From positions 1 to 47,882 of the forward strand of contig NZ_LIPN01000088.1 in assembly GCF_001418325.1 (NCBI RefSeq): a stretch of 47,882 nt of DNA. Direction: 5' to 3'. A program made the translations under genes and the position numbers. This DNA is from Streptomyces atriruber. Lineage in GTDB: Bacteria > Actinomycetota > Actinomycetes > Streptomycetales > Streptomycetaceae. The notes beneath the pieces are model-generated. The model searched no databases. It saw nothing but the letters and a program-made list of their open reading frames with translations, and was not told where the DNA came from. The first letter of the stretch is position 1, and each line of letters opens with the position of its first letter. Below, in pieces: positions 21,986-33,684 of this stretch.

Positions 21986-22981
21986 CTACCGAGTGGACTC
22001 CGCGGCCGCCTCGGCCTCCGTGCCGACGGGCCCCGCCACGGGGTCCACAGGCGCCTGCTCCCGCACCTTCCCCCGCATGCGTGACACCGCGACGCCGGAC
22101 AGGCAGAGCAGACCGCCGAGGAGCGCGAGCCAGCCGGGAACCTCACCGAGGAACAGCCACGACATGAGGATGACGATCACCGGCACCGCGTACGTGGTCG
22201 AACCCATCTTCCCGGCGGTGCTGCGGGAGATGGCGTAGGCCCAAGTACTGAACGCGAGGGCCGTCGGAAACACACCGAGGTACACCACCTGTGCCGTCGC
22301 CGACGCCGGGGCCCGGCCCGCCTCCGACACGAACTGTCCGGCGAACGGCGAACACGCCACCGCTCCGGTGAGCGCACCGAACGTCGTCACCTGAAGAGGT
22401 GTGGCGTGCTTGAGCGTCGGCTTCTGCAGCACCACGCCGACCGCGTACACCACGGCGGCGACCAGGCACAGCAGCACGCCGAGGAGCGAGGAGCCGCCCC
22501 CGCCGGAGGTGGCGAACCCGACGACCACGGCGCCGGCGAACGACACCGCCATGCCGGCCATCAGCTTGGGCGGAAAGCCCTCCTTGAGCAGCCAGCCGCC
22601 GAGGAGCGCCATCAGGATCGGCCCGACGTTGACGATCATGGAGGCCGTACCGGCGTCCACTTCCCGCTCGCCCCAGTTCAGCGCGACCATGTACGCGCCG
22701 AACCACAGGGCTCCCGAGGTGACGATGCCGAGCCACGCCTCGCGGGGCGGTATCCCGCCGCGCCTGACCAGCAGGATGACGCCCAGCACGAGGGACGCCA
22801 CCGCCAGTCGGCCGAAGGCGAGCGCGCCCGGCCCGAAGTGCTCGCCCGAGCTGCGGATCGAGATGAACGACGACGCCCAGAGCACCACCGTGACGGAGGC
22901 CGCCGCGAGCACGCGGCCACCGATCTTGTTCGTCTGCCCGGCGTCGCCGTCCACCACTGTTGTTCCCACCTGCCGGCTCAC
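21986..22981 (-). CDS. EamA/DMT-family exporter (RhtA-like)
   Basis: A 331-residue protein with ten predicted helices in two EamA repeats (about 25-150 and 165-295) and a short polar C-terminal tail. The family includes RhtA, the threonine/homoserine exporter of E. coli, and many amino-acid or metabolite exporters. The GTG start has AGGAGG 8 bases upstream. It lies 19 bases after the XRE regulator gene, so the two probably form one transcript divergent from the biosynthetic operon. Export of the cluster's amino-acid product is my inference. Confidence 0.85.
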   Translation of the reverse strand: MSRQVGTTVVDGDAGQTNKIGGRVLAAASVTVVLWASSFISIRSSGEHFGPGALAFGRLAVASLVLGVILLVRRGGIPPREAWLGIVTSGALWFGAYMVALNWGEREVDAGTASMIVNVGPILMALLGGWLLKEGFPPKLMAGMAVSFAGAVVVGFATSGGGGSSLLGVLLCLVAAVVYAVGVVLQKPTLKHATPLQVTTFGALTGAVACSPFAGQFVSEAGRAPASATAQVVYLGVFPTALAFSTWAYAISRSTAGKMGSTTYAVPVIVILMSWLFLGEVPGWLALLGGLLCLSGVAVSRMRGKVREQAPVDPVAGPVGTEAEAAAESTR

Positions 22982-23000
22982 GATCGAATCCTCCTGGACA

Positions 23001-23828
23001 TCACAGGGCTTGGGCCTGAGGTTGGGATTGGGGCTGTATTCGGGTTCCGGCCTGCCGTGCCGACGCGTTCGTCGGCAGCAGCAGTACGTAACGGAGTTCC
23101 TGACGGTACGCGGGAAGCAGTACCTGTGAGGTGACGGTGATCTCTTCCGCCGAGACGTGCGGGAGGCGCAGCCTGAAGCGGTGCCCCTGCCGGTAGGCGA
23201 TGACGTTGAGGTCCTGGCCCCACAGGCTCCGGCACTCGTGGTCGTCGAGCACTTCGTCGAGGAGCGCGGCCAGCGGGCCCTCGCCCCGGCTCGTCACCAG
23301 GGCGAAGCGCAGCTGGGCCAGGTAGACGGCGGCGTGCGCGGGCCAGTCGGTGAGCTGCTCGCGCGCCTCGGCGGAGGTGAGGACCCAGCGCAGGAGATTG
23401 GCGCCGGGTTCGAGGACCCACGGGAACCAGGTGGCCATGGTCCCCGTGTGGTCGAGGATGTCCCAGGACCGGTCGACGAGGTAGGCGGGGAACTGCTCCT
23501 GGGTGGCGAGCAGTTCGGCGAGCGCGCACCGGGGCTCGCCGTCGTCGTGGGGGTCCGGAACGGCCGGGTCGGCGTGCGCGTGCACGTTTCCGTACAGGGC
23601 CAGGCGCTCGTCGGGACCGAGCGCCAGGGCTGCGGAGAGCCGCGTCAGCGCGTCGGGCGTGAGAGGTACACGGGCATCGCTCTCCAGATTGCGGTACCAG
23701 CGCTCGCTCACTTCCATGCGCTCGGCAACTTCTTTCTGGGGCAGCGGCTTGCCGCGCTGCAATTTCTTTCCGGCGGTGGCCCGCCAGGCACGCAACAGGT
23801 CCGGGAGCCTCGCGGTGTGGTGCACCAC
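23001..23828 (-). CDS. XRE-family regulator with MmyB-like ligand-binding domain
   Basis: A 275-residue regulator. The N-terminal helix-turn-helix (about 8-75) contains LPQKEVAERMEVSERWYRNLESDARVPLTPDALTRLS when read in consecutive parts. The C-terminal MmyB-like domain (about 105-250) has the typical LVDRSWDILDHTGTMATWF and RFALVTSRGEG segments. MmyB-like regulators often sit next to and control antibiotic genes. Two matching palindromes lie in the divergent region to its right, which makes it the best candidate to bind them. The start is GTG at 23828, preceded by GAGAGG. The C terminus is rich in Gln and Pro. Confidence 0.86.
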   Translation of the reverse strand: MVHHTARLPDLLRAWRATAGKKLQRGKPLPQKEVAERMEVSERWYRNLESDARVPLTPDALTRLSAALALGPDERLALYGNVHAHADPAVPDPHDDGEPRCALAELLATQEQFPAYLVDRSWDILDHTGTMATWFPWVLEPGANLLRWVLTSAEAREQLTDWPAHAAVYLAQLRFALVTSRGEGPLAALLDEVLDDHECRSLWGQDLNVIAYRQGHRFRLRLPHVSAEEITVTSQVLLPAYRQELRYVLLLPTNASARQAGTRIQPQSQPQAQAL

Positions 23829-24005
23829 CTGGAATTACCTCTCAGTTGCGTCATACATGGGCACGAAAAGGAAACCGGCCCGCCAGCACAAGATCATCGC
23901 GGCTCAGCCCGCATACTACCGTCACCCAAGGAGCACTCAGTGTGATCTCCGGCACCTGTGCCTGGGGGTTCGTCGACGCACGGGTGCGGCAACGGGCCCC
24001 GTCCA

Positions 24006-24031
24006 ACAACCGGCAAATATTTGCCGGTTGT
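24006..24031. promoter_or_regulatory. perfect 26-bp palindrome, operator site 1
   Basis: A perfect palindrome with half-site ACAACCGGCAAAT. It is AT-rich in the centre (AAATATTT) and flanked by CGG/CCG. It lies 130 bases before the A-T gene start. No T-tract or loop suggests termination, so an operator is more likely. Confidence 0.8.
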
Positions 24032-24038
24032 GCCGACG

Positions 24039-24058
24039 AGCGGCAGATATTTGCCGCT
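24039..24058. promoter_or_regulatory. near-perfect 20-bp palindrome, operator site 2
   Basis: Left half AGCGGCAGAT, right half ATTTGCCGCT, with one mismatch. It shares the core CGGCARATATTTGCCG with site 1, and the two centres are 30 bp apart, about three helical turns, so bound dimers would sit on nearly the same face. Confidence 0.78.
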
Positions 24059-24160
24059 TGACGGTGATCGATTTTGACTGGAAGCATCGTCGCCAGATGC
24101 CACGGAGAGCTTTTCCTCTTCCGTTTCGTGCCAAATTCCCACCCCCATGGAGAGTTATCC

Positions 24161-26035
24161 GTGCAGGCGGTCGACACCCTTTTGAAGCGGGCGTGCGAGA
24201 AATTCGCTGACGCGACCGCAATCACTTCTCCCACCGATTCGATGTCGTATTCCGAACTGCTGTCACGCGCACAGGAGGTGGCGGACGACCTGCGGGCGCG
24301 GGGCGTCGGCAGCGGTGACGTCGTCGGCATCCTCGGCAGACGCGGCGCGTCGGCGGTCGTGGCCGTCCTCGGCGTGTGGATGTCCGGGGCGATCGTCATG
24401 CTCGTGGACGACGCGCTGCCGGACGTGCGGCGCGAGACGATGCTGGCCGCCGGTCCGGCCCGGGCCACCGTCGACTGCTCGGACGGTCACCGGATCGCTC
24501 TGCGGCCCGCCGCCCCGGAGAAGGACGGCACCGCGGCGGCGGCCCCCGACAAGCTCAACCGAATCGACAGGCTCGACAACGAGGACTACGCCTATATCGC
24601 CTTCACCTCGGGATCCACCGGGAAGCCCAAGGCGATCGTCGGCAGTCACACCGGCCTGTCCGCGTTCCTGGAGTGGCAGTCGGGCGAATTCGGCATCGGC
24701 CCGCACGACCGATTCGCGCATCTCACCAATCTCTCCTTCGACGTCTGGTTCCGGGACGCCCTGACGCCCCTGATCTCGGGGGCCACGCTCTGCGTCCCCG
24801 ACGAGCGGCACCTCGACGCCGACGGAGTCCTGGAATTCCTGCGGAGCAACGGGATCACGGGCTTCCATCTCGTGCCCTCGCTCGCCAAGGTGTGGCTGTC
24901 CGGCTCCGCGCCGACCGAGCCGATATCCACCGTCCGCCACTCCTTCTTCGCGGGCGAACCGCTGGACGGCGCCCTCGTCGGCGCGTGGCAGGACCTCTTT
25001 CCCGACTGCCAGGTCGTGAACCTCTACGGGCCCACCGAGACGACGCTGGCCCAGCACTTCTACCGCGTCCCCCGGAATCCGGCCGCCGGAATCCAGCCAG
25101 TGGGCCGGAACCTTCCCCATGCGCGGTCCCATGTCCTGGACGAGAACCGGAAGGTGTGCCCGGACGGCACCGCCGGTGAGATCCACATCGCGGCCGACCA
25201 CCCCTCGCACGGATACCTGGTCGACGGCCGGATGGTCTCGCCCTTCGTCGAGGTGGAGATCGGCGCGGAGCGCGTCGTCGCGTATCCGACCGGAGATCTC
25301 GGACGGCGCGGCCCCGACGGCGGCCTGGAGATCCTCGGCCGGGCGGACGACCAGATCAAGATCGCGGGCGTACGGATCGAGCTGCAGGAGGTCCGCTCCG
25401 CGATCCAGTCCCACCCGAGCGTCCGCGACGTCTTCGTCTGCGCCCAGGAGGACCGCTTCACCAAGGTCATCATCGCGGTCGTCGAAGGCGACGCGACGGC
25501 CGAGCGGGAGCTGCGCGACTACGTGGGCGGCCGCCTGATGAGCGTCATGCTCCCGTCGGCCTTCCTCTTCCTGCCCGAGCTGCCGAAGCTCCCCAACGGC
25601 AAGGTCGACCGCAAGGCGCTGTCCGAGGTCGCCCGGGTCCACGTCGAGGAGCGGGCCCGGCGCGCCGAGGCCGAGCGGGCCGCGGCGGCGCCGGAGGCGG
25701 GCCGCCCGGCGCGCCCGGTGGCCGAGCGGCTCGAACGCATCTGGCTCGACGTGGCGGGCGGCGGGGCGGGTTCCCTGACCGACCGCGAGGCCAACTTCTT
25801 CGACGTGGGCGGGACTTCGCTGACCATCGTGGTGCTCCACTCCGAGCTCCAGCGCGAGTTCGGCGTCCGCTTCCCGCTCGTACGCCTCTTCGAGCACGCG
25901 TCGTTCAACGCGCAGCGGCGCTTCCTCACCTCCGTGACGCAGGAGCCCCACGACCGCGCGCCGAGCGCCTCGGCGGCCACCGGCCGCGCCACGCGCAGCC
26001 GCGTGCTCTCCACCCGGCGCGCCCGTCGCCGCTAG
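24161..26035 (+). CDS. stand-alone NRPS adenylation-carrier (A-T) protein
   Basis: A 624-residue protein with one adenylation domain (about 5-490) and one peptidyl-carrier domain (about 520-590), and no condensation or thioesterase domain. Core motifs seen: A3 FTSGSTGKPK (148-157), A5 YGPTETT (289-295), A7 YPTGDL, A8 GRADDQIKIAGVRIEL and A10 LPNGKVDR with Lys481. The carrier serine is Ser553 in DVGGTSL. By hand alignment to GrsA the pocket is Asp194, Val195, Arg198, His236, Phe262, Ala264, Leu288, Leu296, Ala297. Asp194 fits an amino-acid substrate, and Arg and His suggest an acidic one (inference). GTG at 24161 follows GGAGA. It is the first gene of the operon. Confidence 0.88.
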   Translation: MQAVDTLLKRACEKFADATAITSPTDSMSYSELLSRAQEVADDLRARGVGSGDVVGILGRRGASAVVAVLGVWMSGAIVMLVDDALPDVRRETMLAAGPARATVDCSDGHRIALRPAAPEKDGTAAAAPDKLNRIDRLDNEDYAYIAFTSGSTGKPKAIVGSHTGLSAFLEWQSGEFGIGPHDRFAHLTNLSFDVWFRDALTPLISGATLCVPDERHLDADGVLEFLRSNGITGFHLVPSLAKVWLSGSAPTEPISTVRHSFFAGEPLDGALVGAWQDLFPDCQVVNLYGPTETTLAQHFYRVPRNPAAGIQPVGRNLPHARSHVLDENRKVCPDGTAGEIHIAADHPSHGYLVDGRMVSPFVEVEIGAERVVAYPTGDLGRRGPDGGLEILGRADDQIKIAGVRIELQEVRSAIQSHPSVRDVFVCAQEDRFTKVIIAVVEGDATAERELRDYVGGRLMSVMLPSAFLFLPELPKLPNGKVDRKALSEVARVHVEERARRAEAERAAAAPEAGRPARPVAERLERIWLDVAGGGAGSLTDREANFFDVGGTSLTIVVLHSELQREFGVRFPLVRLFEHASFNAQRRFLTSVTQEPHDRAPSASAATGRATRSRVLSTRRARRR

Positions 26036-26067
26036 CAACCCACTCCCGTACCGGACCAAGGATGAAC

Positions 26068-29053
<2,986 letters not shown>

Positions 29054-29061
<8 letters not shown>

Positions 29062-30202
29062 CAGTTCCTTCCTCGAAGCCGGGCAGCTGGCGAGCCTGAA
29101 GGCCAAGCTCAGGTCGGGGACCACCGGCGCCCCCGCACCGGGCCCGGCCCCCTCGTCCCTCCCCGACCTCGGCGTCATCTTCTTCTCGGGCCTGAGCGGC
29201 GACAGCGACCCCTACGAGCTCCTCCTGGAGGTCTCCCGCTACGTCGACGGCGCCGGGTTCGGCGCCATCTGGACCCCGGAGCGGCACTTCACCGACGCGG
29301 GCGGCGCCTATCCCAACCCGGCCGTCCTCGGCGCCGCGCTCGCGATGATCACCGAGAACGTGCGGATCCGGGCGGGCAGCATCAACCTCCCCCTCCACAA
29401 CGTCCTGCGCGCCGCCGAGGAGTGGGCGCTCGTGGACAACCTCTCCGGCGGGCGCGTGGACCTCGCGGTGGCGCCCGGCTGGCACGCGCGGGACTTCGTA
29501 CTCGACCCCGACGCGTTCCAGGACCGGGCACAGGTGCTCAACCGCTCGCGGGAGCAGCTCCAGGACCTGTGGCGCGGCAACACCGTCCAGCGCACCGACG
29601 CGCTGGGCGAGAGCCACGACATCCTGACGTTCCCGCGGCCCGTACAGCCGGAGCTGCCGGTCTGGCTGACCTCGTCCAAGAGCGAGGACGCCTGGCGGTT
29701 CGCGGGCGAGAACGGCTTCAACGTCCTGTCCGCGCTGATCAACTTCGGTCCGCCCGAGCTGAAGAAGCGCATCGACATCTACCGCGAGGCGCGGGCCCGG
29801 GTGGGGCTCGACCCCGACGCCGGTGTCGTGTCGCTGATGCTGCACACCTATGTGGGCGCCGACATGGACGAGGCCGTCGAGACGGTCAGGCCCGCCATGA
29901 TCGAGTATCTGGGCTCCTTCGTCACGCAGCACGCGACCTCCGGCCAGAGCGAGTCGCGCGACAAGTCCGAGACGCTGCGCACCCTCGACCAGGACCGGGC
30001 GGAGTTCCTGGAGATGGTCTTCCAGCGGTACGTCACGTCGAGCTCGCTCATCGGCGACGCGAAGCAGGCCCGCGCGACCCTGGAGGGCTTCCACGACATG
30101 GGCGTGAACGAGGTGGCCTGCCTCGTCGACTTCGGGCTTTCCAAGGATGAGGTCCTGGCGAGCCTCGCCCGCCTCTCGCCGCTTCTGCAGAACGGAGCCT
30201 GA
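29054..30202 (+). CDS. LLM-class flavin-dependent monooxygenase, MupA type
   Basis: A 382-residue luciferase-like monooxygenase of the type found inside natural-product clusters. After a ~35-residue N-terminal extension the barrel begins LGVIFFSGL and shows WTPERHF, RAGSINLPLHN and GRVDLAVAPGWHARDFVL, all typical of this subgroup. In mupirocin biosynthesis MupA hydroxylates the alpha-carbon of a carrier-bound polyketide (established, from memory). The same reaction on the beta-keto thioester made here would fit. It needs reduced flavin, likely from the reductase at 31516. The ATG overlaps the PKS stop by 8 bases. Confidence 0.88.
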
Positions 30203-30205
30203 CCC

Positions 30206-30778
30206 GTGAAGACGTACAGCTTCCAGGGCATCGAGCCACGCATCCACCCCAGCGTCTACGCGTTCGACGACGTCGTGGTGATCGGGGACGTCGAGATCGA
30301 GGAGGGCGTCAGCCTGTGGCCCGGCGTGACGATCCGCGGGGACAAGGGCGGTGTGCGCATCGGCCGCGGCTCGAACGTCCAGGACCACGCGATGCTCCAC
30401 TCGGATCCCGGGCAGCCGCTGGTCATCGGGCGTGATGTGACGGTCGCCCACAGCGCGGTGCTGCACGGCTGCTCGGTCGGCGCGGGATCGGTCGTCGGCA
30501 TCGGCGCGGTGCTGCTCAACGGGGTCTCGGTCGGCGCGAGTTCACGTGTCTCCGCGGGCGTCGTGCTGAGCGCGGGACCCGTCTACCCGGCCCGGAGCCT
30601 CATCGCGGGCAACCCCGCGACCGTCCTGATGACGCTGAGCGACAGCGACGTGGCGGTGCTCGACGAGACGGCCGTCGAGTACCGGGAGCTGGCCGAGCAG
30701 TACCGCACGGGCCTGCGCCCGCTCGGCCCCCGCACCGAGGCGGCCAACGTCCCCGAGGCGGCCGCCGTTGTCGAGTAG
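30206..30778 (+). CDS. gamma-carbonic-anhydrase-like hexapeptide-repeat protein
   Basis: A 190-residue left-handed beta-helix protein with hexapeptide repeats across about 15-135. It keeps the gamma-class signature: RGD (44-46), NVQD (57-60) and the three metal-ligand histidines His65, His82 and His87 in the block VAHSAVLHGC. The usual Gly before the second His is Ala. Family members include carbonic anhydrases, and PaaY, a thioesterase in phenylacetate catabolism (established). With no thioesterase elsewhere in the operon, product release is a possible job (inference). GTG start with GGAG upstream, 3 bases after the monooxygenase stop. Confidence 0.82.
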   Translation: MKTYSFQGIEPRIHPSVYAFDDVVVIGDVEIEEGVSLWPGVTIRGDKGGVRIGRGSNVQDHAMLHSDPGQPLVIGRDVTVAHSAVLHGCSVGAGSVVGIGAVLLNGVSVGASSRVSAGVVLSAGPVYPARSLIAGNPATVLMTLSDSDVAVLDETAVEYRELAEQYRTGLRPLGPRTEAANVPEAAAVVE

Positions 30779-31529
30779 CGCTCTCGCCCGCGGCACCCTC
30801 CGCGTGGGGTTCCAGCGGAGCACTCCCCCGTTCTCCTACGCGCCGGGCCCGGCCTTCGAACCCATCGGCTACTCCGTGGACCTGGCTCGCCTCGTCCTCG
30901 CGAAGGTCTTCGACGGTACGCGGCAGCCCCCGCCCCTCGAAGCCGTCGAGGTCACCTCCACCACGCGGGAGGGCCTCCTCGCCGAGGGCCGCATCGACAT
31001 CGAATGCGGGTCGACGACCATCACCGAAGCACGGCTGCGGCGCTGCGCGTTCAGTCGGCCGATCTTCCGGACCTCGCACCGGATCGCCGTGAAGCCGGGC
31101 GCGACGGCGGGCACGGGCACCCGGCGCGTGGTCGGCATCCAGGGCTCGACGAGTCAGGCCGCCCTCGAAGGCGCGCCGGATCCGGGCTTCGCCTTCGCCT
31201 TCGTCGGTGTGCCGTCCATCGGCGCGGCCTTCGACGCCTTCCTCGACGACCCGCTCGTCGACGCGATGGTCGCGGACGAGGTGATCCTGCGGACCCTGCT
31301 GCGCGGCGACCGCGTGCCGGGCGACGTCTCCTTGCTCGACGTGCGGCTCGGCGAGGAGGGCTACGGATTCATGATGCGCAAGGACGACCCGGAGTTCGTC
31401 CGTGCCGTCGATGCCGCGCTGGCCGACGTGCTCGCGTCCGACGTGCACCCGAAGCTCCTCGACACGTGGTTCGCCGACGAGCCGCCGATGAGCTCCCCGA
31501 ACGGAACAGGCACCCATGAAAACCTCTGA
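30768..31529 (+). CDS. SBP_bac_3-fold protein without signal peptide
   Basis: A 253-residue protein with the type II periplasmic-binding fold of polar amino-acid binding proteins (GTLRVGFQRSTPPFSY at the start, IDIECGSTTITEARLRRCAFSRPI in the middle, YGFMMRKDDPEFVRAVDAAL near the end). It begins directly at the domain, with no signal sequence or lipobox, and no transporter genes accompany it, so it is probably cytoplasmic. Enzymes with this fold exist, such as cyclohexadienyl dehydratase, which also decarboxylates. A catalytic or ligand-sensing role is therefore possible. TTG start, overlapping the upstream gene by 11 bases and the next by 14. Confidence 0.75.
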   Translation: MSSSALARGTLRVGFQRSTPPFSYAPGPAFEPIGYSVDLARLVLAKVFDGTRQPPPLEAVEVTSTTREGLLAEGRIDIECGSTTITEARLRRCAFSRPIFRTSHRIAVKPGATAGTGTRRVVGIQGSTSQAALEGAPDPGFAFAFVGVPSIGAAFDAFLDDPLVDAMVADEVILRTLLRGDRVPGDVSLLDVRLGEEGYGFMMRKDDPEFVRAVDAALADVLASDVHPKLLDTWFADEPPMSSPNGTGTHENL

Positions 31530-32046
31530 GACCACCGCGTCCGCCCTCCAGGACACGTTCAAGGACGTCATGGCCAGCGTGGCCACGCCCGTCTCGATCG
31601 TGACGGGTCTGGCCCACAACGGCGCGCCGTGCGGGGCGACCGTCAGCGCCTTCTCCTCGCTCTCGGTCTCCCCGCCGATGATCCTGGTCAGCCTGGACCG
31701 GCGCTCGCGCACCCTTGAGGTCATCCGCGAGTCCGGTCGCTTCGGGCTCAACGTGCTCGGCGCCGACCAGGACGACCTGGCGATGTCGTTCGCGTCCAAG
31801 GGCGGCGCCGACAAGTTCCGCGGGACGTCCTGGAGCATCGAGCACGGCCTCCCCCGCATCTCGCGGTCGTCGGCGTGGATCGCCTCGACCGTGGCCGACT
31901 TCGCGGACGGCGGCGACCACGTCATCGTCCTCGGCCGCGTCGACGCGGCGGAGGCCGCGGCGAGCCGGGCCCCGCTGGTGTACCACCGGCGCAACTTCGG
32001 CACCCACCAGCCGTACCACCGCAGCGCCCGAGGAGTACCGGCATGA
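31516..32046 (+). CDS. flavin reductase-like domain protein
   Basis: A 176-residue protein of the HpaC/flavin-reductase split-barrel family, with the segments PVSIVTGLAHNGAPCGATVSAFSSLSVSPPM (read in two parts), FGLNVLGADQDDLAMSFA and the C-terminal APLVYHRRNFGTH. It would use NAD(P)H to make free reduced flavin for the LLM monooxygenase in the same operon. The ATG overlaps the upstream gene by 14 bases, and its own stop overlaps the homoserine dehydrogenase start (ATGA). Confidence 0.88.
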   Translation: MKTSETTASALQDTFKDVMASVATPVSIVTGLAHNGAPCGATVSAFSSLSVSPPMILVSLDRRSRTLEVIRESGRFGLNVLGADQDDLAMSFASKGGADKFRGTSWSIEHGLPRISRSSAWIASTVADFADGGDHVIVLGRVDAAEAAASRAPLVYHRRNFGTHQPYHRSARGVPA

Positions 32047-33326
32047 CGCACCGGGTCAGGATCGGGCTGCTCGGCTGCGGCACGGTCGGGGCGGACTTCG
32101 CCGAGCTGCTGGTGGAGCGGCGCGCCGCGATCGAGTCCGTCACGGGCCTCTCCCTCGATCTCGTACGCGTCGCGGTGCGCGACGCCCGCAAGCCGCGGCC
32201 CCCGGCCCTGGACGCGGAGCTGTTCACCGCCGACGCGCACGACGTGGTGAAGGCCGACGACGTCGACCTCGTGGTGGAGCTGATCGGCGGCACGTCGGCG
32301 GCGGGCGAACTGGTCCTCGCGGCGCTGGACGCCGGGAAGCCGGTGGTGACCGCCAACAAGGAGCTCATCGCGAGCGCGGGCCCCGAGCTGTTCGCCGCGG
32401 CCGACCGGGCGGGCGTCGACCTCTTCTTCGAGGCGGCCGCGGTGGCCGCGGTCCCCATCCTGCGCCCCATGCGGGAGTCCTTGCTCGCCGAGGACGTGAC
32501 GCGGGTGGTCGGCATCGTCAACGGCACCACCAACTACGTGCTGACGCGGATGACGGTCGACGGCCTCGGGTTCGACGAGGCGCTGGCGCAGGCGCAGGAG
32601 CTCGGCTACGCGGAGCCCGACGCGAGCGCCGACATCGAGGGCGCCGACGCGGCGTCCAAGGTGGCCATCCTCGCCTCGCTGGCCTTCAACCGGTCGGTGG
32701 TCGCGGACGACGTCAGCAGGGAGGGCATCGTCGGCCTCGACCGGGAGGACTTCGAGCTGGCCGACCGGTTCGGCTTCGACATCAAGCTCCTCGCCGTGGC
32801 CGAACGCTTCGCCGACGGCGGGGCGGTGGGCGCCCAGGTCTTCCCCGCGCTGATCGCGCGCGACCATCCGCTGGCCAGTGTCCGGGACAGCTTCAACGCG
32901 GTGTTCCTCACCACCTCCGCCGCCGGTGAGCTCATGTTCTACGGGCACGGCGCGGGCCCGCGGCCGTCCGCCTCGGCGATCCTCGGTGACGTCACCGGCG
33001 CCGCGGACCAGCTGGTGCGTGGCACGCACCGCCGCGTCCCGGTCGGCCCGCCCGCGGTCATGCGGCCGACGCGGGACCTGGTGCACTCCTACTACGTCCG
33101 CGCCGACGTCGACGAGGCGCCGGGCGTCCTGTCCGAGGTGACGGGGGTGTTCGCCCGGCACGGCGTGTCCATCCGCACGGTGGACCAGCACGGCTCGGAG
33201 TCGCGGGCCCGCATCGTGTTCATCACGTTCCCCGCGCCCGAACACGCGCTGCACGGCGCGCTGGACGAGCTGCGCGGCCTCGGCCGGGTGCGGGGAGTGG
33301 GCCGGGTGCTGCGCATCCACACATAA
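32043..33326 (+). CDS. hom: homoserine dehydrogenase, probable self-resistance isoform
   Basis: A 427-residue enzyme with the complete family layout: NAD(P)-binding GLLGCGTVG (8-16), TANK with Lys106, NGTTNYVL (160-167), catalytic-region Glu191, Asp202 and Lys206 (GADAASK), and a C-terminal ACT domain (PGVLSEVTGVFARHGVSI). It reduces aspartate semialdehyde to homoserine. The usually strict EAxVxGxIP stretch reads EAAAVAAVP (130-138), replacing the conserved Val and Gly by Ala. ATGA overlap with the reductase gene and GAGGAG upstream. As the only primary-metabolic enzyme in the operon it is best read as a resistant duplicate. Confidence 0.9.
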   Translation: MTHRVRIGLLGCGTVGADFAELLVERRAAIESVTGLSLDLVRVAVRDARKPRPPALDAELFTADAHDVVKADDVDLVVELIGGTSAAGELVLAALDAGKPVVTANKELIASAGPELFAAADRAGVDLFFEAAAVAAVPILRPMRESLLAEDVTRVVGIVNGTTNYVLTRMTVDGLGFDEALAQAQELGYAEPDASADIEGADAASKVAILASLAFNRSVVADDVSREGIVGLDREDFELADRFGFDIKLLAVAERFADGGAVGAQVFPALIARDHPLASVRDSFNAVFLTTSAAGELMFYGHGAGPRPSASAILGDVTGAADQLVRGTHRRVPVGPPAVMRPTRDLVHSYYVRADVDEAPGVLSEVTGVFARHGVSIRTVDQHGSESRARIVFITFPAPEHALHGALDELRGLGRVRGVGRVLRIHT

Positions 33327-33381
33327 CGCCTCACCACACCCCACGACAGCGACAGATACCGAACCACACGGAGTGCCACCC

Positions 33382-33684
33382 ATGTCCCAGCCGATTCAGC
33401 TCGTCATCCAGATCACCACGCAGCCGGGCCGCGGCAAGGAGCAGACCGACGCCTACGAGCGCCTCGCGCCGCTCGTGCGCGCCGAGGACGGCTGCCTGCA
33501 GTACGACCTGCACCAGGTGACCGGCGACCCCGACCGCTTCGTCCTCATCGAGCGGTGGGCGTCGCAGGAGGCGCTCGACGCGCACGACGCCACGCCGCAC
33601 ATGGTCGAGGCCGACGCGGCGAGCCCGGCGTTCCGCGCGGGCCCCGCCGTGGTCGTACGCCTCGATGCGGAGCCCCTGGCCTGA
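33382..33684 (+). CDS. ABM-domain (antibiotic biosynthesis monooxygenase-like) protein
   Basis: A 100-residue dimeric alpha-beta barrel protein with the ABM features LVIQITTQPGRGKE, APLVRAEDGCLQYDLHQ and DRFVLIERWASQEALDAH. Members include cofactor-free monooxygenases, haem-degrading enzymes and proteins of unknown role in antibiotic clusters. It is last in the operon, 55 bases after the homoserine dehydrogenase stop. I chose the ATG at 33382 over an in-frame GTG three codons earlier because CGGAG lies 8 bases before it. Its part in the pathway is not evident. Confidence 0.8.
   Translation: MSQPIQLVIQITTQPGRGKEQTDAYERLAPLVRAEDGCLQYDLHQVTGDPDRFVLIERWASQEALDAHDATPHMVEADAASPAFRAGPAVVVRLDAEPLA

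What the first reader, a model, noticed from the sequence alone, without database searches (positions are those of the whole stretch)
21986..33684. Compact hybrid NRPS-PKS operon that may make 5-hydroxy-4-oxonorvaline (HON) or a close analogue
Seen: exporter, XRE regulator, then A-T, KS-AT(malonyl)-ACP, MupA-type monooxygenase, gamma-CA-like protein, PBP-fold protein, flavin reductase, homoserine dehydrogenase and ABM protein, mostly with overlapping starts. Known, from memory: HON is a Streptomyces antifungal that inhibits homoserine dehydrogenase, and tracer work attributed its carbon to aspartate plus one acetate/malonate-derived carbon. Inferred route: A-T activates aspartate through its side-chain carboxyl, the KS condenses it with malonyl-ACP, the LLM enzyme hydroxylates the alpha-carbon, and hydrolysis plus decarboxylation leaves the hydroxymethyl ketone. 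One enzyme per step and a target duplicate fit well. I cannot tell whether this cluster has been described.
Basis: partly seen in the sequence, partly recalled or inferred. Interest (0 to 1): 0.95.

Follow-up and report, generated by a model that had tools for sequence, protein, structure and literature searches.

The report
Likely gene cluster for antifungal HON
A compact Streptomyces gene cluster, found with the same six core genes in eleven other bacterial genomes of two phyla, is predicted to make the antifungal amino acid HON or a near relative, and it carries an extra homoserine dehydrogenase, the enzyme HON blocks, whose family tree shows three separate origins among these clusters and which likely protects the producer.

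Summary
The genes are as described, with corrected starts. The six-gene core (A-T, KS-AT-ACP, MupA-type monooxygenase, gamma-CA-like, solute-binding-fold protein, homoserine dehydrogenase) recurs in 11 other genomes: Streptomyces, Kitasatospora, Rathayibacter, Pseudomonas, Marinobacterium, betaproteobacterial MAGs. Among 71 other monooxygenase loci none carries a homoserine dehydrogenase. The biosynthetic core forms one lineage, but its homoserine dehydrogenases come from three (AU test against one clade, p about 1e-45), each kin to its own phylum's or genus's enzymes, catalytic residues intact: what a repeatedly captured target copy would look like. One active-site glycine, invariant in 14 of 14 housekeeping copies, is changed in 12 of 12 cluster copies. 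Every cluster has an EamA or LysE exporter; two LysE ones tested score best against homoserine efflux protein. The A domain keeps one ten-residue code in 12 of 12, with an Arg/His pair recalled from enzymes that activate acidic amino acids through the side chain. The AT is malonyl-type, there is no reductive domain, and MupA hydroxylates ketothioesters. HON fits each predicted step. Not shown: A-domain substrate, release, resistance, product. No HON gene cluster appeared in my open-access searches.

The parts
21986..22981 (-). EamA-family exporter (likely product export)
   Evidence: PF00892 6.6e-43; found in 5 of 5 Streptomyces clusters (window, L039, L040, L041, L151); the 7 other clusters have a LysE-type exporter instead
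23001..23828 (-). XRE/MmyB-type regulator
   Evidence: PF17765, PF13560; found in 4 of 12 clusters
24161..26035 (+). A-T didomain (adenylation + carrier), likely start GTG 24161; pocket residues D235 V236 R239 H278 F299 A301 L322 L330 A331 K517 in GrsA numbering
   Evidence: TIGR01733 324.3 bits, PF00550; code identical in the window and all 11 relatives (10, L151)
26062..29061 (+). KS-AT(malonyl-type)-ACP, no reductive domain, no thioesterase domain
   Evidence: Pfam domains; KS C-H-H, AT GHSLGE/HAFH and ACP Ser checked in the window and 10 relatives, 11 of 11
29054..30202 (+). MupA-type FMN-dependent monooxygenase (predicted alpha-hydroxylase)
   Evidence: TIGR04020 387.7 bits vs cut-off 244.45; the 12 cluster LLMs are one clade against 41 others, SH-aLRT 100
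30206..30778 (+). gamma-carbonic-anhydrase/PaaY-like hexapeptide protein with the metal His triad (possible metal-dependent thioester hydrolase)
   Evidence: PF00132; NF050158 and TIGR02287 below cut-off; His triad kept in 11 of 11, read by eye
30768..31529 (+). SBP_bac_3-fold protein without signal peptide; nearest solved relatives are PDB 2ia4/2vha (recalled as an aspartate/glutamate-binding protein)
   Evidence: PF00497; 2ia4 E 1.2e-22; no hydrophobic leader in 11 of 11
31516..32046 (+). flavin reductase (likely supplies reduced FMN to the monooxygenase)
   Evidence: PF01613 1.6e-38; L047 and L048 have an unrelated NAD(P)H-flavin (Fre/LuxG-like) reductase instead
32043..33326 (+). second homoserine dehydrogenase (likely self-resistance target copy)
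   Evidence: PRK06349 457 bits; the other HSD, at G000:C601, is only 47% identical; three origins; K106, E191, D202, K206 kept, the Gly135 position is Ala
33373..33684 (+). ABM-domain protein, role unknown, found in Streptomyces clusters only
   Evidence: PF03992 1.5e-20; found in 5 of 12 clusters

Best explanation
This is an NRPS-PKS cluster with all its reading frames open, predicted to make the antifungal amino acid 5-hydroxy-4-oxo-L-norvaline (HON), and it carries a second homoserine dehydrogenase that is likely the producer's resistant copy of HON's target. Inferred route: (1) the A domain adenylates L-aspartate on its side-chain carboxyl, with Arg239/His278 holding the free alpha-carboxylate, and loads it on the T domain. 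(2) The KS condenses the beta-aspartyl unit with one malonyl unit chosen by the AT, giving a 3-oxo thioester on the ACP, which no domain reduces. (3) The MupA-type monooxygenase, fed by the flavin reductase, hydroxylates the carbon between the two carbonyls. (4) The thioester is hydrolysed, by the thioesterase where present and perhaps by the gamma-CA/PaaY-like protein, and the beta-keto acid loses CO2, leaving HOOC-CH(NH2)-CH2-CO-CH2OH. (5) An exporter (EamA here, LysE/RhtB-like elsewhere) pumps it out, and the extra HSD keeps threonine and methionine synthesis running. The signal-less solute-binding-fold protein may hold the amino-acid head of an intermediate or of the product. Shown by my calls: gene set, core conservation, one origin of the core, three origins of HSD, kept catalytic residues, the changed glycine. 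Predicted or untested: substrates, steps 1-5, resistance, product.
For: (a) The core A-T, KS-AT-ACP, LLM, gCA, SBP and HSD occurs together in 12 of 12 clusters. Of the best 80 LLM loci kept from 329, the 9 with at least 56% identity all have HSD, gCA and SBP; the other 71 have none of the three. L039 and L151 also have them, but were found through SBP and HSD. (b) HSD tree: 11 cluster and 12 other HSDs from the same 11 genomes need three origins, one clade rejected at p-AU 9.7e-46. With the proteobacterial cluster HSDs left out, the Streptomycetaceae and Rathayibacter ones are still not one clade (p-AU 2.5e-5); with the Streptomycetaceae ones left out, the proteobacterial ones still group with proteobacterial HSDs, 100/100. 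LLM tree: one clade, SH-aLRT 100. (c) HSD catalytic positions kept 12 of 12. Gly135 is the only column invariant in 14 of 14 housekeeping copies and changed in 12 of 12 cluster copies; 0.12 expected if independent. Its counterpart in P. horikoshii HSD, Ala145, contacts the substrate C4 hydroxyl through water (PMC4495429, passages). (d) The A-domain code is identical in 12 of 12 clusters, down to 48% identity of the domain; Arg239+His278 in 3 of 103 A domains of the other LLM loci. V236 matches the A236V change fixed in TycA variants selected for a beta-amino acid (PMC11253843, passages). (e) The LysE-type exporter, 2 of 7 tested, scores best against homoserine efflux, 178.4 and 164.2 bits, cut-off 209. 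(f) MupA acts on an ACP-bound beta-ketothioester, not on the beta-hydroxy form, and needs an external reductase (PMC10952193, passages). (g) HON is a suicide inhibitor of HSD from S. akiyoshiensis (PMC9293202, passages).
Against: No product, expression or enzyme data. The pocket code is not exclusive to this cluster: all 120 listed A-domain homologues (of 820 found), including 52 more distant ones, share Arg239/His278, and I do not know what those activate. The published VinN hallmarks of side-chain activation are absent. In the MupA study acetoacetyl-ACP was not turned over, so activity on a short chain is not a given. The window and L042 lack the thioesterase, so release is unexplained there. 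Yeast HSD has Ala at the Gly135 position (Ala148) and is HON-sensitive, so the glycine change alone cannot be the whole resistance story. Of the 120 listed HSD homologues (of 7988 found) 41 have Ala there, and for the more distant of these I could not see the gene neighbours. The Streptomycetaceae cluster HSDs derive from an actinobacterial subfamily, not from the Streptomyces housekeeping enzyme. No role is established for SBP, gCA or ABM. No flavin reductase was recognised in L044 and L045.
Confidence: 0.72

Rival explanations
1. The HSD is a biosynthetic enzyme: it would reduce the C4 ketone of HON or of a precursor, and the product would be 2-amino-4,5-dihydroxypentanoic acid or a relative.
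For: HSD is kept in 12 of 12 clusters and its catalytic residues are intact; its natural substrate, aspartate semialdehyde, resembles HON.
Against: Three separate origins from HSDs of the host's own phylum or genus, while the concatenated other core enzymes and the LLM descend as one lineage, fit a target copy better; in Rathayibacter the cluster HSD lies inside that genome's own HSDs. Published HON chemistry makes HSD its victim.
Confidence: 0.12
2. The hydroxylated beta-keto thioester is released by lactam formation instead of hydrolysis, giving a hydroxylated dioxopiperidine-carboxylic acid that is not HON and keeps all carbons.
For: The free amine of a beta-aspartyl chain could close a six-membered ring; the window has no thioesterase in the cluster.
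Against: 10 of 12 clusters have a thioesterase; a cyclic product would resemble neither aspartate semialdehyde nor homoserine, so HSD capture and homoserine-type exporters would be unexplained.
Confidence: 0.08
3. The A domain loads another acidic amino acid, such as glutamate through its gamma-carboxyl, or aspartate through its alpha-carboxyl, and the product is a homologue or regioisomer of HON.
For: Pocket codes alone cannot separate these; Arg239/His278 occurs in a broad A-domain group.
Against: HSD uses aspartate-derived substrates, so a resistant HSD points to an aspartate-derived inhibitor; the nearest solved relative of the SBP protein is recalled as an aspartate/glutamate binder.
Confidence: 0.08

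Closest known systems
HON / RI-331 of Streptomyces akiyoshiensis
   Same: A Streptomyces amino acid that acts on fungi by inactivating homoserine dehydrogenase (PMC9293202 and PMC8241756, passages); its carbons match aspartate plus one malonate carbon (tracer work recalled, not seen).
   Different: No listing or passage that I saw gives a gene cluster for it; that this cluster makes it is predicted.
MupA alpha-hydroxylation of mupirocin
   Same: Same monooxygenase family and predicted chemistry on an ACP-bound beta-ketothioester.
   Different: Here one stand-alone module with its own flavin reductase; in the mupirocin cluster no reductase was identified and a KS0 takes part.
VinN-type side-chain-activating A domains (VinN, AfcQ, BolO)
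   Same: Aspartate or methylaspartate activated on the side-chain carboxyl is the predicted reaction.
   Different: Arg331 and the one-residue-shorter loop of VinN are absent; the predicted carboxylate partners are Arg239 and His278.
Clusters with a duplicated, resistant target enzyme
   Same: A second copy of the presumed target, catalytic residues kept, sits in the operon, another copy elsewhere.
   Different: The target copy has three origins within one cluster lineage.
RhtB homoserine/homoserine-lactone efflux protein
   Same: Best NCBIfam match of the LysE-type exporter in the two relatives tested.
   Different: Score below the curated cut-off, and the window has an EamA-type exporter instead.

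Membership tests
MupA/Atu3671 FMN-dependent monooxygenases (TIGR04020) | score above curated cut-off | tested here: met
   387.7 bits vs 244.45
HON biosynthetic cluster | strain makes HON and loses it on gene deletion | not testable with these tools
   needs culture and mutants
HON biosynthetic cluster | A domain for an acidic amino acid with free alpha-carboxylate | tested here: inconclusive
   Arg239/His278 conserved; link to side-chain activation is recalled
HON biosynthetic cluster | one malonyl extension, ketone kept | tested here: met
   one KS-AT-ACP, HAFH motif, no KR; sequence evidence only, motif meaning recalled
VinN-type A domains | Arg331 and one-residue-shorter beta13-beta14 loop | tested here: not met
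   position 331 is Ala; the loop aligns without a gap to an ordinary A domain; hallmarks
Target-duplication resistance clusters | second copy of the target in the cluster, another copy elsewhere | tested here: met
   11 of 11 genomes searched
Target-duplication resistance clusters | catalytic residues intact | tested here: met
   12 of 12 at four positions; the positions are recalled
Target-duplication resistance clusters | cluster copy resists the product | not testable with these tools
   needs enzyme assay
RhtB homoserine efflux equivalog (NF007812) | score above curated cut-off | tested here: not met
   178.4 (L047) and 164.2 (L042) bits vs 209

The most novel reading that the evidence does not exclude
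This is the unassigned HON pathway: a minimal NRPS-PKS line, spread across Actinomycetota and Pseudomonadota, that turns aspartate and one malonate into a free antimetabolite amino acid, and whose carriers have at least three times captured a homoserine dehydrogenase of their own phylum as a resistance gene, altering the same active-site loop each time.
Probability: 0.6. Interest if true: 0.86.

Novelty: new variant of a known kind. Interest (0 to 1): 0.8.

Why it matters
HON is a natural antifungal known for about 60 years, but my searches showed no gene cluster for it. This cluster would give it one, testable in named culture-collection strains such as S. massasporeus JCM 4139 and K. phosalacinea NRRL B-16228. 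The three origins of the target copy are a natural experiment on how HSD escapes a suicide inhibitor, relevant to HSD as an antifungal target. The A-T plus single PKS module plus MupA set would be a short, portable route to hydroxymethyl ketone amino acids.

Tried and rejected
VinN-type side-chain activation: rejected as family membership, because Arg331 and the short loop are absent. The A-domain code as proof of aspartate: weakened, because the same code occurs in many more distant A domains. The Gly135 change as proof of resistance: weakened, because yeast has Ala there, 41 of 120 listed HSD homologues have Ala, and the expected number of such columns is 0.12, not zero. At the looser 90% threshold two columns qualify against 0.42 expected; the second, position 267, is also Tyr in a housekeeping HSD of Rathayibacter. 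Long-branch artefact as the cause of the three HSD origins: tested by leaving out either long group; the placement held (one search was the same test and stopped on a labelling error). HSD and ABM read as one protein in P0004; not followed. A thioesterase supplied from elsewhere in the genome: four distant matches at 32-35% identity, none convincing. A survey of 300 genomes of the order of the Comamonadaceae MAG at E <= 1e-125 found only the known genome, 1 of 300; yet the A-T protein search lists Burkholderia and Noviherbaspirillum copies with the same code (P0158, P0159, P0172), so more carriers probably exist. AlphaFold of the SBP protein from a single sequence gave pLDDT 34 and was not used. 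Paper searches for the recalled pocket codes and for HSD residue numbers gave nothing useful. I could not look at the neighbours of HSDs P0018-P0022, which carry the changed loop.


Full report
OBSERVATION. The ten genes are real, open and in the stated order. The A-T reading frame opens at 24074, but the likely start is GTG 24161, six bases after GGAGAG, matching the 624-residue database copy. The HSD starts at 32043, overlapping the flavin reductase stop. The KS, AT and ACP active-site motifs and the AT HAFH motif (malonyl-type, motif meaning recalled) are present in the window and 10 relatives, 11 of 11 aligned. The monooxygenase passes the curated MupA/Atu3671 model.

CONSERVATION. A scan of the species-representative genome collection with the monooxygenase kept the best 80 of 329 relatives. 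Nine of them, at 56-81% identity, carry A-T, KS-AT-ACP, gCA, SBP and HSD; the next best locus drops to 46%. One more carrier, G279 (L039), came from a genus search with the SBP protein, in which G279 and the window were the only two close matches among 295 genomes. Another, G635 (L151), came from an HSD search over 394 genomes of the class, in which 5 passed E 1e-112: the window, G635 and three without the cluster genes in the stretches fetched. With the window this makes 12 of 12 with the six-gene core. L039 and L151 were found through SBP and HSD, so only the nine are an unbiased test for HSD. Of the 71 other monooxygenase loci, 0 carry HSD, gCA or SBP at E 1e-5; several of these are short contigs. 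Carriers include Streptomyces, Kitasatospora, Rathayibacter iranicus, a Comamonadaceae MAG, a beta-proteobacterial MAG, Pseudomonas sp. dw_612 and Marinobacterium ramblicola. A search of 300 genomes of the Comamonadaceae MAG's order found no further carrier at E 1e-125 (1 of 300, the known one), but the protein database lists A-T copies with the same code from Burkholderia and Noviherbaspirillum.

HSD HAS THREE ORIGINS. Each of the 11 genomes searched holds a cluster HSD and at least one other HSD; the window's two are 47% identical. A tree of 11 cluster and 12 other HSDs needs three changes of type: Streptomycetaceae cluster HSDs beside actinobacterial ones, the Rathayibacter one inside that genome's HSDs, and the proteobacterial ones beside proteobacterial HSDs. 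One clade is rejected (log-likelihood 121 lower, p-AU 9.7e-46). The program warns of long branches, so I rebuilt without either long group, now with L151 and three HSDs of genomes without the cluster nearby: the proteobacterial cluster HSDs still join proteobacterial HSDs (100/100), and Streptomycetaceae plus Rathayibacter cluster HSDs are still rejected as one clade (p-AU 2.5e-5). In a wider tree the Streptomycetaceae cluster HSDs sit in an actinobacterial subfamily apart from the Streptomyces housekeeping enzyme. The 12 cluster monooxygenases form one clade against 41 of the 71 others (30 were not put in the tree; SH-aLRT 100), and the concatenated A-T, KS-AT-ACP, LLM, gCA and SBP tree has 8 of 9 inner branches well supported. 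A biosynthetic enzyme would be expected to travel with the core; a copy of the target can be taken anew from the host's kin. This is the main evidence for self-resistance, and it is indirect.

HSD ACTIVE SITE. Four catalytic positions (Lys, Glu, Asp, Lys; roles recalled from yeast HSD) are kept in 12 of 12 cluster HSDs. Among columns invariant in 14 housekeeping HSDs (the shortened second Rathayibacter paralogue left out), only window position 135 is changed in all 12 cluster HSDs: Ala in 7, Thr in 1, Val in 4. With 88 such columns, 0.12 would be expected if the three lineages changed independently. The left-out Rathayibacter paralogue has the same Thr. By the correspondence given in PMC4495429 (passages) the motif is Glu143-Val146-Ala148-Leu150 of yeast and Glu140-Val143-Ala145-Thr147 of P. 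horikoshii, where the backbone of Met144 and Ala145 contacts the substrate C4 hydroxyl through water. HON forms its adduct with NAD through its C5 (PMC9293202, passages), next to that place. Yeast has Ala148 and its enzyme is inactivated (PMC8241756, passages), so in Streptomyces the preceding Ala-to-Val change may matter more. Of the 120 best HSD homologues listed, 41 have Ala at the position and 79 Gly; in a wider tree 35 rows including database entries of unknown neighbourhood share the changed loop.

ASSEMBLY LINE. The A-domain pocket reads D V R H F A L L A K in GrsA numbering (positions listed in PMC11253843, passages; placed by motif, GrsA motifs recalled, and consistent with the alignment) and is identical in the window and all 11 relatives. 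Arg239 with His278 is found in 3 of 103 complete A domains of the other 71 loci (32 incomplete ones dropped). I recall, without a call to confirm it, that A domains of microcystin-type synthetases that load methylaspartate and glutamate by the side chain share this pair. The code is not exclusive: 68 of 68 stand-alone A-T relatives listed have it, and Arg239/His278 is in all of the 52 more distant hits listed. MupA hydroxylates the alpha carbon of an ACP-bound beta-ketothioester, not of the beta-hydroxy form, and needs an external reductase, for which Fre was used; acetoacetyl-ACP was not turned over (PMC10952193, passages). Here the reductase is in the cluster: PF01613 type in the window and Rathayibacter and, by similarity, the other Streptomycetaceae; Fre/LuxG type in Pseudomonas and, by similarity, Marinobacterium; none seen in L044 and L045. 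Two unrelated families fill the same slot.

EXPORT AND RELEASE. All 12 clusters have an exporter near the A-T: EamA in five Streptomyces, LysE in the other seven (LysE confirmed by Pfam in three). The LysE proteins of L047 and L042 score best against homoserine/homoserine lactone efflux protein, below its cut-off. A thioesterase gene (PF00975 in L039) lies between gCA and SBP in 10 of 12; the window and L042 lack it. The gCA-like protein keeps its His triad and resembles PaaY, recalled to be a thioesterase, so it may do the hydrolysis. The SBP protein has no leader in 11 of 11, and its nearest solved relatives are 2ia4/2vha, recalled as an aspartate/glutamate binder. It is likely an intracellular amino-acid binder of unknown purpose.

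CONCLUSION. Aspartate activated at the side chain, one malonyl unit, alpha-hydroxylation, hydrolysis and decarboxylation would give exactly HON, a known suicide inhibitor of the enzyme that these clusters keep acquiring. I put 0.72 on HON or an immediate form of it. Full-text searches found papers that mention HON (passages of two reviews read) and no gene cluster in the listings and passages seen; two further searches found no paper. Most subscription journals are outside that library, so I claim only that these searches did not find one.

Noticed in passing
P0018, P0020, P0021, P0022 and P0026, P0038, P0049, P0055 (protein search): HSDs, some named as from other Streptomyces, Micromonospora and Pseudonocardiaceae, carry the altered active-site loop but are only 54-61% identical; they may sit in other HSD-targeting clusters.
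   Followed up: partly
L142 (Rathayibacter, G298:C1:260010-260939): A shortened third HSD copy close to the cluster HSD, with the same Thr at the key position, looks like a decaying duplicate.
   Followed up: no
L060, L061, L074: The only three other monooxygenase loci in which a complete A domain also has Arg239/His278; their products may contain side-chain-linked acidic residues.
   Followed up: no
P0004 (Streptomyces sp. NL15-2K): HSD and ABM are read as one 571-residue protein; either a real fusion or a lost stop codon.
   Followed up: no
window gCA/SBP junction, 30768-30778, and L042 9380-9451: The thioesterase gene found in 10 of 12 clusters is missing in these two, which look like separate losses.
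   Followed up: partly
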